Positions 17,589 through 62,973 of a DNA stretch of 64,000 nt are shown here, one piece after another. Both the position numbers and the translations under genes were made by a program. The stretch is from Ptychodera flava (taxonomy: Eukaryota > Hemichordata > Enteropneusta > Ptychoderidae): the NCBI RefSeq assembly GCF_041260155.1, contig NC_091931.1:14870361-14934360 (forward strand). Reading direction: 5' to 3'. Position 1 is the stretch's first letter. Every line of letters begins with the position of its first letter. Under the pieces are notes generated by a model that was given only the letters and a program-made list of their open reading frames with translations, did no database searches and was not told where the DNA came from.

Positions 17589-17953
17589 TTATATATTTAA
17601 GAGAACTAGATTTTCTGCTGCATTATTGTTGCGTCGTACTCCCCTTTTATGTGGTCGTTTTCGGGGCATAGCATACTTGAGGTTCTTCCAGAACTTCTCC
17701 GTCTTACCGCCCTCTCCCGGCCAAGAGATGTAAGAGATCTCCCTGAGCAGACTTTTAAGGTTAGCATCCATATCTTCCACTGGTGAGATATCTTCAAACA
17801 TGATGGGGATTATTCTACTTTTCTTCTTCAACATTTCTTCCTGGGCTTTCAGAAATTCATAGCGACACCACTCACTCTCGACAAATCGTGGCGACAGGAT
17901 CAGTATCGTACGACGGCTTAAGTCAACAGCTTGCTCGATATTCTTGTATATAT
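17589..17953 (-). CDS. Gene A exon 13: TIR domain, C-terminal half and stop
   Basis: Starts in phase 1 after CTCGCAG. It contains RTILILSPRFVESEWCRYEF (the SxxFxxSEWCxxE strand-C/D motif), IIPIMFEDI, and box 3 EKFWKNL, then a short basic tail ending LVLLNI and stop TAA. The WCxxE glutamate aligns with the position that is catalytic in SARM1-type TIR NADases, but TLRs share this motif without known NADase activity. Confidence 0.95.
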
Positions 17954-60900: not shown

Positions 60901-62973
60901 GGGACTTTCAAGTGGGAGCCGGTATGTATGAATCGTCAATACCATAAAGATCAAAATAAGCCCCGGAAGTCTAGAATATGAAGACTTTGAGCCTAGATGC
61001 AATATACATTGTTTCGGCCACTGCAGTTCCATGTGTGGAATTACTGAGGCAATTGAGGCTTCTAGGCTATAGGGAGCCGTTATTATTTACGGCCTGGGGG
61101 TCGGAGAAATCTGAGGGGGATCACACAAACACATTGAAAGCTAGAAGGGGGGTTGTCAAAATGTGGAGAGAAAGAAGGGGGTCAATTTTTGGCGAAAAAT
61201 AAATTGAAACACCTCTAAAATTGCACCATTTCACACATCAATTCCTCAAAATTTTCGAGGAATTGTTGTGTAATACACCCTCTCTGGTGCTCTCCCCTTT
61301 GGCTGTTCTAACACTTCTACTTATTGAAAACACCTCTTAGATTGCACAAGACTGCACCATTGCACACATCAACTTCTCAAAATTTTCCACGCAAGCGAGG
61401 GGACAGCCTCTCTGACACTTTCCTCTCAGCCTCCCATTCCCTTGTGTACTTTCAAATTCTTCCCCGTCAGATATCTTAGTGAAAACCCTGTCATGATACC
61501 AATTCGAAATAAACAATACTTTATGGTTGGATATTGGTTATAGTGTGAACTTTTATATCTATATTTTGTTGCGACCTTGAATTTCATTTTGTTGGTTTCA
61601 CCTTTTTCAACCGTCATGAGATAACCGATGATGATCTGGCAGCCTGAACACGATTTGGGATAATTGGATTTTCATTTTTTTCAAATTTCTCAAAAGTGTT
61701 AGCTGCCATATAGCTGAATGTTGCAATATCGCAAATTACACATCAAAATAAGTGTGCAATGTAAAAAGAAAAGCAGATGAGATTATATTTGTAGATTAAA
61801 TCAGCAATACTTCACTATCCAATAATCCTCAATTAGTTCCACGAGTCAGTGTTCGGGGTTACACCAGGATTTGAAAGTTCTTTCTCTGCTGTATTTTTGT
61901 ACATTTTATAAACACATGTATTGATATTTAACTTTTCTTAGTGGGGAGCAGTCAAAATTTATGTGTAAGAGAGGGGGTTACTTAAATTCACCATGGTTGG
62001 CAGGGGGGTTTACTCGAAATTTCAGATGAAATATCCATGACCTCCCCCCCGCCCTAAATCATCACGGTTCCCTTATGATCCATGGTCTGTTCCACAAGCA
62101 CATATAGGTAAATACGTGTACGTACTGTAACAACTCTTTCGGGCAAGTGTGTATTAGAAAGAGATATCCCTACTCTGTCCGCATAATGCTGCTTACGGAC
62201 GGATGCTTTGAGCTTTAGCCCAACTGTACTACGTTGGGATAGATAAACCAGTCTTTGGAGGACCAGATACCTATATTGCGGTCAACTGTAAATATTTTAT
62301 CCGCTTGATCCATAGTCTGTGTCGTACCGTTGTTTCTTCATCGATATACAGTCATAATGTGAGCATGATTGTTAGGTGTGATTTTACAGGCTGTGCTGTG
62401 GTATGCTCGAGTTCGTAGCGTGCCAATTCCGACAAGACAGGTAGTCTGATTTTGAAGCGCTGTCAAATATGATTAAACTGGAGGACTGTTGTACTCTTGT
62501 TGCCTGCAGGCTCATAGCCTAATCTCAGCTTATGACAGCTAGAATATCGATCTGTCAAAGAACAAGATGTCTTTTCTGAGGGAAAACATTTCTTAAAACA
62601 TTCTCTTTCGTCTCCAGCAATTATGGATAACATCTTGGACGCAATCCAGAACAGTAGCCGGACAATCCTTGTGCTGAGTCCATGGTTCGTGCAGAGTGAG
62701 TGGTGTCGCTTTGAATACGAGAAGGCACAGGCGGAAATGCTGAGAATCGGCACCAAGATCATACCAATCATGTTCGAAGACATCACGCGACTGGATGACG
62801 TTGATCCATCACTGAAGAGTCTATTGAATGTGGTGACCTACCTGAAATGGCCTGGCGAGGCTGGAACCCGGGAAGAGACGGAGAAGTTCTGGGGAACCTT
62901 GGTAGAAGCTATGCCCAAGAAAACTAGGCGAGGAGATATTGATGACGAGGCTGAACGGCTGCTAATAGCCTGA
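48776..62973 (+). CDS. Gene B: Ig/EGF/TIR transmembrane receptor, 13 coding exons
   Basis: Paralogue of gene A in the opposite orientation, ATG at 48779. Coding exons: 48779-48910, 50198-50306, 51050-51250, 52109-52300, 53272-53400, 53758-53923, 54231-54349, 55137-55466, 56019-56345, 59482-59754, 60354-60506, 60766-60921, 62618-62973. They join in one open frame to about 880 residues. Order: signal peptide (1-~25), divergent N-terminal region (~26-211), EGF (~212-254), Ig1 (~255-349), V-set-like Ig2 (~350-459), Ig3 (~460-568), Ig4 (~569-659), TM (~668-688), TIR (~711-865). All introns are GT-AG with the same phases as gene A. Introns hold MITEs (50.6 and 61.7 kb), a foldback-like element (56.7-59.4 kb) and long simple repeats. 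A TGCAG acceptor just before the ATG implies an untranslated 5' exon upstream that I could not place. Its role as an innate-immune receptor is inferred from the TIR domain. Confidence 0.9.
49098..49211. repeat. Inverted repeat, right arm, downstream of gene B exon 1
   Basis: Complement of 47931-48040. Together they enclose the minisatellite and the signal-peptide exon. Just after it, 49202-49225 and 49338-49363 form another inverted pair (TAATTTGTTCTAGCGATCACC-type words). Confidence 0.8.
50198..50306 (+). CDS. Gene B exon 2: N-terminal ectodomain, part 1
   Basis: Acceptor CGTGCAG|AAC (phase 0), donor AACT|GTAAGT (phase 1). It encodes [14 protein letters not shown] and continues to a Cys split across the splice junction, as in gene A. 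It has N-glycosylation sequons (NIT, NLT). No family is recognised. Confidence 0.78.
50561..50763 (+). mobile_element. MITE family M, copy 4 (intron of gene B)
   Basis: A diverged copy from AACACGACTG to CCAATCGTGTT, flanked by TTGT on each side (50557-50560, 50764-50767). It lies between exons 2 and 3 of gene B. Confidence 0.8.
51050..51250 (+). CDS. Gene B exon 3: N-terminal ectodomain, part 2
   Basis: I place the acceptor at GTTGCTAG|GC rather than the AG three bases later, because only this restores frame and the CSLHLYIW start that aligns with CSVEIYFH of gene A. NLTMTCKS carries a conserved Cys. The donor is CAAG|GTATGT, phase 1. Confidence 0.78.
51641..51860. repeat. (ATGT)n, (CATC)n, (CATA)n compound microsatellite
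   Basis: In the gene B intron between exons 3 and 4. It explains long low-complexity open frames on both strands. Confidence 0.95.
52109..52300 (+). CDS. Gene B exon 4: N-terminal ectodomain, part 3
   Basis: A 64-codon phase 1-1 exon between GCTGTCAG and [15 protein letters not shown] and VQLQC align with IPTRWLSYG and LMFTC of gene A. It closes the uncharacterised N-terminal region before the EGF module. Confidence 0.8.
53272..53400 (+). CDS. Gene B exon 5: EGF module
   Basis: A 43-codon phase 1-1 exon with eight cysteines: [11 protein letters not shown], then CHCQNGASC, then [15 protein letters not shown]. Donor GACG|GTAAGT. It is one EGF unit, like gene A, whereas vertebrate Tie receptors carry three. 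Confidence 0.93.
53758..53923 (+). CDS. Gene B exon 6: Ig1, first half
   Basis: 166 nt, phase 1 to 2. [10 protein letters not shown] carries the first Ig cysteine and SMSWSVGG the core tryptophan. The splice donor GAAAG|GTAAGC falls in the middle of the Ig fold. Confidence 0.92.
54123..54163. repeat. (TTAA)n microsatellite
   Basis: Tetranucleotide run in the gene B intron that splits Ig1. Confidence 0.9.
54231..54349 (+). CDS. Gene B exon 7: Ig1, second half
   Basis: 119 nt, phase 2 to 1. [20 protein letters not shown] is the E/F-strand segment with the second Ig cysteine; it ends in a G strand ([10 protein letters not shown]). Donor ACAG|GTTAGT, as in gene A. Confidence 0.92.
54633..54870. 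repeat. (TATG)n and (TA)n microsatellites
   Basis: Gene B intron before the V-set exon: TATG run to about 54760, then TA runs to about 54870. Confidence 0.95.
55137..55466 (+). CDS. Gene B exon 8: Ig2, V-set-like
   Basis: A 110-codon phase 1-1 exon: [33 protein letters not shown], ending VMIIG. The D-x-G-x-Y-x-C signature is complete. A whole V-type domain is encoded by a single exon. Confidence 0.95.
55849..55925. repeat. (TA)n tract
   Basis: Gene B intron between the V-set and Ig3 exons. Confidence 0.95.
56019..56345 (+). CDS. Gene B exon 9: Ig3, C2/I-set-like
   Basis: A 109-codon phase 1-1 exon. [19 protein letters not shown] gives the first cysteine and core tryptophan, and [11 protein letters not shown] the second cysteine. 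Donor CGAT|GTAAGT. The following intron (56346-59481) is swollen by a nested transposon. Confidence 0.95.
56529..56600. repeat. (TA)n tract
   Basis: Gene B intron after the Ig3 exon, about 110 bp left of the foldback-like element. Confidence 0.95.
56717..59373. mobile_element. Foldback-like element in a gene B intron
   Basis: 2.66 kb. The left end TATGGAAATCCGGTCACGAC and right end GTCGTGACCGGATTTCCATA are inverted copies, each continuing into arrays of short GCGACCTGCGAC-type words (56740-56880 and 59170-59365). Direct 7-bp repeats GTTGTAG flank it (56710-56716, 59374-59380). Long terminal repeats built of short tandem units are the hallmark of foldback elements. A Harbinger-like element is nested inside. 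Confidence 0.88.
57021..58609. mobile_element. Harbinger-like element H, copy 2, nested
   Basis: About 1.6 kb from AGGCCGCGTTCAAAAA to TTTTTTGAACGCGGCCT, inside the foldback-like element. The interior matches 32802-34526 throughout, with several small indels. Flanking triplets TAA and TAT are an imperfect match. No transposase recognised. Confidence 0.75.
59482..59754 (+). CDS. Gene B exon 10: Ig4, membrane-proximal
   Basis: A 91-codon phase 1-1 exon. [20 protein letters not shown] then [14 protein letters not shown]. The core Ig tryptophan is missing (VNFACG where gene A has YHWEVD) and there are extra cysteines, so the fold may be modified. Confidence 0.92.
60354..60506 (+). CDS. Gene B exon 11: transmembrane helix
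   Basis: A 51-codon phase 1-1 exon. Basic RKRSLR precedes about 20 hydrophobic residues ([19 protein letters not shown]), followed by [12 protein letters not shown]. Basic residues on both sides make orientation from charge alone ambiguous, but the TIR domain downstream puts the C-terminus inside the cell. Confidence 0.92.
60766..60921 (+). CDS. Gene B exon 12: TIR domain, N-terminal half
   Basis: 156 nt, phase 1-1. Box 1 is [10 protein letters not shown]. Box 2 is [10 protein letters not shown], where the usual proline of the BB loop (RDFxPG) is valine. Donor GCCG|GTATGT. Confidence 0.95.
60922..62617. other. Gene B intron between the two TIR exons
   Basis: Besides MITE copy 5, there is an imperfect duplication of ACACCTCTnAnATTGCAC with CACACATCAAnTnCTCAAAAT (about 61207-61250 and 61330-61385). 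No additional exon seen. Confidence 0.5.
61647..61845 (-). mobile_element. MITE family M, copy 5 (intron of gene B)
   Basis: A degenerate copy in the intron between the two TIR exons. Both terminal repeats carry small deletions (AACACGATTTGGGATAATTG at the left), and no target duplication is visible. The interior matches copy 1 in orientation. Confidence 0.75.
62618..62973 (+). CDS. Gene B exon 13: TIR domain, C-terminal half and stop
   Basis: Acceptor GTCTCCAG in phase 1. Contains [36 protein letters not shown], and box 3 EKFWGTL, ending AERLLIA and stop. It aligns throughout with gene A exon 13; the tails after box 3 differ. Confidence 0.96.

What the first reader, a model, noticed from the sequence alone, without database searches (positions are those of the whole stretch)
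17589..62973. Paired receptors joining Tie-like Ig/EGF ectodomain modules to a TIR signalling domain
Seen: two genes each encode signal peptide, N-terminal region, one eight-Cys EGF, four Ig-like domains, TM and TIR. Known: IL-1R/SIGIRR-type receptors have Ig plus TIR but no EGF; Tie receptors mix Ig and EGF but end in a kinase. Inference: an EGF-containing Ig-TIR receptor family, possibly formed by exon shuffling (nearly all introns are phase 1), acting in innate recognition. I do not recognise this architecture as a named receptor.
Basis: partly seen in the sequence, partly recalled or inferred. Interest (0 to 1): 0.88.

Follow-up and report, generated by a model that had tools for sequence, protein, structure and literature searches.

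The report
Acorn-worm EGF-immunoglobulin-TIR receptor genes
Two intact neighbouring genes of an acorn worm encode cell-surface receptors whose outside is built from one EGF and four immunoglobulin modules and whose inside is a Toll-like TIR signalling domain, an arrangement that my searches found only in acorn worms and that may be a home-grown counterpart of the interleukin-1 receptor.

Summary
The window is Ptychodera flava (hemichordate): a database protein of that species equals residues 156-880 of gene B. Gene A (minus, 28343-17589, 833 aa) and gene B (plus, 48779-62973, 880 aa) each have 13 GT-AG exons, no internal stop and the same 12 intron phases, 10 of them phase 1. Order: signal peptide, N-terminal region without a convincing Pfam or PDB match, eight-Cys EGF, four Ig, TM, TIR. 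A and B are 33% identical; B groups with P0002/P0003, A lies outside, so this is no recent duplication. Family members were found only in P. flava and Glandiceps talaboti. By sequence the ectodomain is a patchwork: EGF-Ig1 nearest Tie2, Ig2-Ig3 nearest Kirrel/SYG; the TIR is nearest TLR1/2/6/10, ahead of IL-1R-type TIRs. Best reading: an enteropneust receptor family laid out like IL-1R but assembled independently, probably signalling by TIR clustering through MyD88. Function is inferred. EGF-TIR and IG-TIR are in print as separate classes; my searches found no combined one. New variant of a known kind.

The parts
28206..28343 (-). Gene A exon 1: start codon, signal peptide (by eye), start of N-terminal region
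   Evidence: hydrophobic stretch at residues 6-24; aligns with P0004 and P0005 N-termini
27182..27281 (-). Gene A exon 2 (N-terminal region)
   Evidence: alignment with P0002/P0004/P0005
26760..26900 (-). Gene A exon 3 (N-terminal region)
26087..26248 (-). Gene A exon 4 (N-terminal region)
   Evidence: the acceptor could lie 6 bases further 3' (TTACAG) without change of frame
25338..25460 (-). Gene A exon 5: eight-cysteine EGF module
   Evidence: tblastn with Glandiceps P0005, 57% identity
23962..24127 (-). Gene A exon 6: first half of Ig1
22883..23001 (-). Gene A exon 7: second half of Ig1 (phase-2 intron before it)
22258..22578 (-). Gene A exon 8: Ig2 (I-set/V-set)
21467..21787 (-). Gene A exon 9: Ig3 (CD80-like C2-set)
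20102..20362 (-). Gene A exon 10: Ig4
   Evidence: (below cut-off alone)
19112..19240 (-). Gene A exon 11: transmembrane helix and juxtamembrane
   Evidence: hydropathy peak 2.87 at residues 626-644
18529..18684 (-). Gene A exon 12: first third of TIR, box 1 FDAFVSY, BB loop RNFLPG
17589..17953 (-). Gene A exon 13: rest of TIR, FW of box 3, stop codon
48779..48910 (+). Gene B exon 1: start codon, signal peptide (by eye), start of N-terminal region
   Evidence: homologous to P0002/P0004/P0005 N-termini; absent from database model P0001
50198..50306 (+). Gene B exon 2 (N-terminal region)
51050..51250 (+). Gene B exon 3 (N-terminal region)
52109..52300 (+). Gene B exon 4 (N-terminal region)
   Evidence: its 3' part is in database protein P0001
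53272..53400 (+). Gene B exon 5: eight-cysteine EGF module
53758..53923 (+). Gene B exon 6: first half of Ig1
54231..54349 (+). Gene B exon 7: second half of Ig1 (phase-2 intron before it)
55137..55466 (+). Gene B exon 8: Ig2 (V-set)
56019..56345 (+). Gene B exon 9: Ig3 (CD80-like C2-set)
59482..59754 (+). Gene B exon 10: Ig4
   Evidence: (below cut-off alone)
60354..60506 (+). Gene B exon 11: transmembrane helix and juxtamembrane
   Evidence: hydropathy peak 2.79 at residues 668-686
60766..60921 (+). Gene B exon 12: first third of TIR, box 1 YDAFVCY, BB loop RDFQVG
62618..62973 (+). Gene B exon 13: rest of TIR, FW of box 3, stop codon

Best explanation
Two intact members of an acorn-worm family of single-pass receptors: signal peptide, a four-cysteine N-terminal region of unknown fold, Tie-like EGF-Ig1, Kirrel/nectin-like Ig2-Ig3 tandem, Ig4, TM, TLR1/2-like TIR. 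Shown by sequence: the architecture, the exon plan, deep A/B divergence, a complete relative in a second enteropneust family. Inferred: the family was built by phase-1 exon shuffling on a TLR-type TIR tail, independently of the vertebrate IL-1R family. Most likely mechanism (inferred): the Ig/EGF ectodomain binds a protein ligand or a partner on another cell, two or more receptors (possibly unlike ones, such as A with B) are brought together, their TIRs form a platform that recruits MyD88-type adaptors, and IRAK/NF-kB signalling follows. The ectodomain sets specificity and has diverged faster than the TIR.
For: Gene models without stops, 12 of 12 intron phases shared. Database protein P0001 equals B residues 156-880. 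P0004 (P. flava) and P0005 (Glandiceps) carry the whole order from signal peptide to TIR. TIRs of A, B, P0003, P0004, P0005 and the cousin P0006 fall on one side of a branch with support 92/94 (not starred), the 13 LRR-TIR rows on the other (19 rows, P0007 lost for want of my motif). Box 1, BB loop and FW are present in both. TIR 50% and EGF 52% identical between A and B against 25-36% for the other modules. Nearest solved structures by module: Tie2 EGF3-Ig3, Kirrel1/Rst/SYG, TLR1/2/6/10; Foldseek of the P0004 model finds Rst D1-D2 at TMt 0.82, rank 10, behind nectin-like molecules and others at lower TMt.
Against: No expression, ligand or signalling data. In the TIR tree A, P0006 and the B group form an unresolved three-way fork with long branches, so the tree does not show A and B to be closer to each other than to P0006. 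Gene A was found in no database hit and its Ig1 lacks the usual Trp, so it is less certain than B. B has QV in the BB loop where A and several others have a proline. Ig matches are partly generic: titin matches A over Ig1-Ig4 at 8.7e-19, close to Rst at 7.4e-20. An exon break at the BB loop is recalled for IL-1R-type genes (not tested) and would argue for shared origin. No IL-1R TIR rows could be put in the tree. P0002, a near relative of B, leaves the TIR frame, so not every copy need signal.
Confidence: 0.6

Rival explanations
1. True IL-1R-family orthologues that gained an N-terminal region, an EGF and a fourth Ig domain in acorn worms.
For: Same general layout (Ig array, TM, TIR). The TIR is cut by a phase-1 intron just after the BB loop in both genes; an intron near that place in IL-1R-family genes is recalled, not tested. 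IL1RAP, IL1RAPL and SIGIRR TIRs follow the TLR1/2/6/10/15 group among solved matches.
Against: TLR1/2/6 TIRs score better than IL-1R-type TIRs for A, B and Glandiceps P0005: B TIR 1.1e-21 for TLR1 against 1.5e-15 for IL1RAP. Ig2-Ig3 match Kirrel/SYG best; no IL-1R ectodomain is among the rows shown (60 of 145, 60 of 704).
Confidence: 0.15
2. Adhesion or modulatory receptors, like Kirrel/nectin or IL1RAPL/SIGIRR: the Ig2-Ig3 tandem mediates homophilic or heterophilic contact and the TIR dampens or redirects signalling.
For: Kirrel1/Rst/SYG and nectin-type matches for the Ig array; B and P0003 have RDFQVG in the BB loop instead of a proline form; P0002 leaves the TIR frame.
Against: P0004 and P0005 have RDFPPG and A has RNFLPG, TLR-like; box 1 and FW are kept in A, B, P0003, P0004 and P0005, so signalling looks selected for in these copies.
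Confidence: 0.2
3. Gene-model artefact or decayed copies.
For: Gene A is absent from the database hits; P0001 lacks exons 1-3 of B.
Confidence: 0.03

Closest known systems
IL-1 receptor family (IL1R1, IL1RAP, IL1RAPL, SIGIRR)
   Same: Ig array, one TM, cytoplasmic TIR
   Different: EGF, extra N-terminal region, four Ig domains; TIR nearer TLR1/2/6/10; Ig domains nearer Kirrel/nectin
Toll-like receptors of the TLR1/2/6/10 kind
   Same: Nearest TIR sequence among solved structures; 75 of the 82 hits are LRR-TIR proteins by their listed domains
   Different: No leucine-rich repeats here
Tie receptors (Tie2/TEK)
   Same: Eight-Cys EGF followed by an Ig; E 2.2e-6 for A, 1.6e-8 to 2.5e-8 for Glandiceps P0005
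   Different: One EGF against three, no FN3, no kinase; N-terminal region not matched
Kirrel/Rst/SYG-1/SYG-2 and nectins
   Same: V-set plus CD80-like C2-set tandem (Ig2-Ig3), best matches for Ig2-Ig3
   Different: Those have no EGF and no TIR (recalled)
EGF-TIR and IG-TIR classes of molluscs (oyster PMC4346834, Aplysia PMC9334734) and Ig-TIR of sea anemones (PMC5094078)
   Same: TIR joined to EGF or to Ig modules; PMC5094078 says the Ig-TIR combination appears to have arisen separately in cnidarians and vertebrates (passages read)
   Different: Counted as separate classes there; the passages I saw name no protein with both EGF and Ig
P0006, P. flava 'uncharacterized protein'
   Same: EGF-Ig start, TM, TIR 48-49% identical to A and B
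   Different: Second EGF (Tie2-like) and a HYR domain instead of Ig2-Ig4

Membership tests
IL-1 receptor family | Extracellular Ig domains, TM, C-terminal TIR | tested here: met
IL-1 receptor family | Ectodomain of Ig domains only, usually three (recalled) | tested here: not met
   four Ig, one EGF, N-terminal region
IL-1 receptor family | TIR closest to IL-1R-type TIRs | tested here: not met
   TLR1/2/6/10 rank above IL1RAP, IL1RAPL and SIGIRR for A, B and P0005; by pairwise score, not by a tree with IL-1R rows
IL-1 receptor family | TIR intron positions | not testable with these tools
   no vertebrate gene structures at hand
Toll-like receptors | Leucine-rich-repeat ectodomain | tested here: not met
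   no LRR family in the Pfam tables of A and B at E 0.01
Toll-like receptors | TLR-type TIR with box 1, BB loop, FW | tested here: met
Tie receptor kinases | Cytoplasmic tyrosine kinase | tested here: not met
   TIR instead; no kinase family
Tie receptor kinases | Tie-type eight-Cys EGF joined to Ig | tested here: inconclusive
   Tie2 is the only EGF-bearing match to EGF-Ig1 in the rows shown, with moderate E-values; no Pfam EGF model reaches cut-off
Kirrel/IRM adhesion receptors | Kirrel-type D1-D2 Ig tandem | tested here: met
   Rst 7.4e-20 and Kirrel1 1.1e-19 for A, SYG-2 4.3e-16 for P0005; similarity only, other Ig proteins are not far behind
Kirrel/IRM adhesion receptors | Five Ig domains and no TIR (recalled) | tested here: not met
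   four Ig, TIR and EGF

The most novel reading that the evidence does not exclude
Acorn worms evolved their own IL-1R-like system: Kirrel-type self- or partner-recognition modules and a Tie-like EGF-Ig were put on a TLR-type TIR tail, and unlike members (A with a proline BB loop, B without) work as a two-chain receptor for self/non-self or cell-state recognition. The N-terminal region would be a new fold with a dedicated ligand.
Probability: 0.15. Interest if true: 0.75.

Novelty: new variant of a known kind. Interest (0 to 1): 0.45.

Why it matters
Ig-TIR receptors seem to have been put together more than once in animals (PMC5094078, passages, says so for cnidarians and vertebrates). Hemichordates are relatives of echinoderms within the deuterostomes (recalled beyond the lineage), so an EGF-Ig-TIR family there, with a TLR-like TIR and a Kirrel-like Ig tandem, is a testable further case and could show which parts of the IL-1R layout are needed and which are interchangeable. 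It also adds to the annotation: P0001 lacks exons 1-3 of gene B, and gene A turned up in no database hit, though it was never itself the query.

Tried and rejected
The first splice model had 11 exons: it used a phase-1 donor in exon 1 and missed exons 2 and 4. The relatives P0002, P0004 and P0005 showed the error; one search added the exons but ended B exon 4 one base early, which put B out of frame; one search is the corrected model. The protein search and the PDB search were run with the provisional models. In one search my cut left the last cysteine off the EGF of A (7 counted); the sequence itself has eight.

One search (P0005 residues 15-256) returned only P0005; it missed even P0004, so it says nothing about absence. 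One search (profile search with A1) returned 11 proteins: P0001, P0002, P0004, P0005 and seven others, none of which lists a TIR domain; it missed P0003 and P0006, both rows of the query, so it too is incomplete. Neither gene A nor the A profile was ever the query. No hit is labelled Saccoglossus; I did not check that its proteome is in the database, so absence there is open.

Structure prediction of P0004 with A1 gave mean pLDDT 52.9; the N-terminal region was below 50, so its fold stays unknown. Foldseek (top 50 rows seen) only restates Ig arrays. I did not fold the N-terminal region alone.

IL-1R membership was considered and not adopted. Tie membership was rejected (no kinase). A recent tandem duplication was rejected: A and B 33% identical, B groups with P0002/P0003. 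The window holds no further copy (tblastn: 0 of 76 hits outside the two genes). No RNA family at gathering score and no tRNA was found.
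Full report
What is there. The window is from Ptychodera flava, an enteropneust hemichordate (taxonomy): the best protein hit, P0001, is an 'uncharacterized protein [Ptychodera flava]' and equals residues 156-880 of gene B exactly. Gene A lies on the minus strand (28343 to 17589, 833 aa), gene B on the plus strand (48779 to 62973, 880 aa). They stand head to head with about 20.4 kb between start codons. Both have 13 exons, all introns GT-AG, no internal stop, and the same phase at 12 of 12 introns (0,1,1,1,1,2,1,1,1,1,1,1). No further copy is in the window (0 of 76 tblastn hits outside).

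Anatomy. Exons 1-4 give a signal peptide (called by eye; the stretch in A passes my hydropathy threshold, that in B does not) and an N-terminal region of about 155-190 residues with four invariant cysteines. It matches no solved structure at E up to 5, and its best Pfam match over five members has E 0.097, below cut-off. Exon 5 is an eight-cysteine EGF. Exons 6-7 make Ig1; exons 8, 9 and 10 are Ig2, Ig3 and Ig4; exon 11 is the TM; exons 12-13 are the TIR. Ig and TIR models pass Pfam cut-offs in both proteins, with four Ig_3 stretches in each. Ig4 exons alone do not reach a cut-off, and no EGF model does, so the EGF rests on its cysteine pattern and on the Tie2 match.

Relatives. One search gave 82 proteins at E 0.001 among 6562 candidates, searched with the provisional B model. 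P0001-P0005 share the Ig ectodomain (four P. flava, one Glandiceps talaboti). P0006 (P. flava) shares EGF, Ig and TIR but continues with a second EGF and HYR. P0007-P0081 (75) list TIR and LRR domains. P0082 is nephrin-like with no TIR listed. A profile search with six of these gave 11 proteins, four from the family and seven others without a listed TIR; it missed P0003 and P0006. P0004 and P0005 carry the complete order with the N-terminal region. P0001 lacks exons 1-3, P0003 starts within Ig1, and P0002 leaves the TIR frame after box 1. Identity: A-B 33%, B-P0002 72%, B-P0003 77%, B-P0004 52%, B-P0005 42%, A to the other four 29-34%. In the six-protein tree B joins P0002 and P0003 (100/98) and A stands apart on a long branch. 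Since B is closer to the Glandiceps protein (Spengelidae) than A is, the A/B split may predate the split of the two families; this is an inference from identities and a tree with a long branch.

Which modules look like what. For A (provisional model; 60 of 145 rows shown) the best solved matches were TLR1 for the TIR (1.3e-23), Rst (7.4e-20) and Kirrel1 (1.1e-19) for Ig2-Ig3, titin over Ig1-Ig4 (8.7e-19), and Tie2 for EGF-Ig1 (2.2e-6). For P0005 (60 of 704 rows shown) they were TLR2 (3.6e-21), SYG-2 (4.3e-16), CADM4 and DSCAM (about 3e-14), and Tie2 in three chains (1.6e-8 to 2.5e-8). For the B TIR alone: TLR1 1.1e-21, TLR2 1.6e-20, IL1RAP 1.5e-15, IL1RAPL2 8.6e-13, SIGIRR 1.1e-10, MyD88 1.6e-5. 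In a tree of 19 TIRs the family and P0006 lie together (92/94, below the program's star) apart from the 13 LRR receptors given; inside that group A, P0006 and the B-type rows are unresolved, the program warns of long branches, the root is the midpoint, and no IL-1R rows were available. The AlphaFold model of P0004 is usable only from Ig1 on; Foldseek then finds nectin-like molecules first and Rst D1-D2 with TMt 0.82.

How it probably works. The TIRs keep box 1, a BB loop and FW. BB loops differ: RNFLPG in A, RDFQVG in B and P0003, RDFPPG in P0004 and P0005. TIR and EGF are the most conserved modules between A and B (50% and 52%); N-terminal region, Ig domains and TM are at 25-36%, as expected if the ectodomain has diversified for recognition over a kept signalling tail. 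I infer ligand- or contact-driven clustering, TIR assembly, MyD88-type adaptor recruitment and NF-kB output. None of these steps was tested. An A-B hetero-receptor is only a possibility, suggested by the different BB loops and the shared locus.

What is known. In the passages I read, oyster and Aplysia papers count EGF-TIR and IG-TIR as separate classes (PMC4346834, one passage; PMC9334734, four passages), and a sea-anemone paper says that Ig-TIR appears to have arisen separately in cnidarians and vertebrates (PMC5094078, 12 of 13 passages). An amphioxus paper reports 20 of 28 TIR domain combinations as amphioxus-specific (PMC2575513, section 7 read; 'EGF' does not occur in its main text; its supplements were not seen). 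Passages of PMC6321704, PMC5549309 and PMC7075850 mention no EGF-Ig-TIR protein. A search for five wordings of a combined class found no paper. Searches on TIR receptors, hemichordates and related terms (12 of 13 listed; 24: 20 of 25; 26: 12 of 17; 27: 15 of 379; 41: 10 of 38; 45: 9 of 9; 56: 5 of 5; 66: 12 of 12) showed no title on such a family; apart from the papers just named I saw only the listings. Two works that may bear on it, a 2017 survey of deuterostome TLR pathways and a 2017 survey of bivalve TIR proteins, are recalled only; the first is not held, the second was not looked up.

Verdict. Lineage-specific TIR combinations are known in quantity from amphioxus, so this is a new variant of a known kind.

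Noticed in passing
P0002 (P. flava relative), C-terminus: The database model of this near relative of gene B leaves the TIR reading frame shortly after box 1 and ends; its tail resembles an alternative frame of the same stretch in B. Either an annotation or assembly error or a copy without a working TIR.
   Followed up: partly
window 9925-12320: Tandem array, 157-base unit, about 15 copies, 98% matches.
   Followed up: no
window about 34600-37950 and 44650-47900: Two intergenic stretches about 10 kb apart share many translated pieces in the same orientation, most of those listed 82-97% alike; probably repeats or a segmental duplication.
   Followed up: no
window about 40560-42620: Repeated blocks spaced about 612 bases, with further copies near 34.1-34.9 kb.
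   Followed up: no
window 42856-43323, minus strand: 155-aa open frame that looks to me like a piece of a retroelement; no Pfam match at E 0.01.
   Followed up: partly
P0006 (P. flava): Cousin receptor with EGF-Ig-EGF-HYR-TM-TIR; its second EGF matches Tie2 at 2.3e-14. Suggests a wider set of Tie-like ectodomains on TIR tails in this species.
   Followed up: partly
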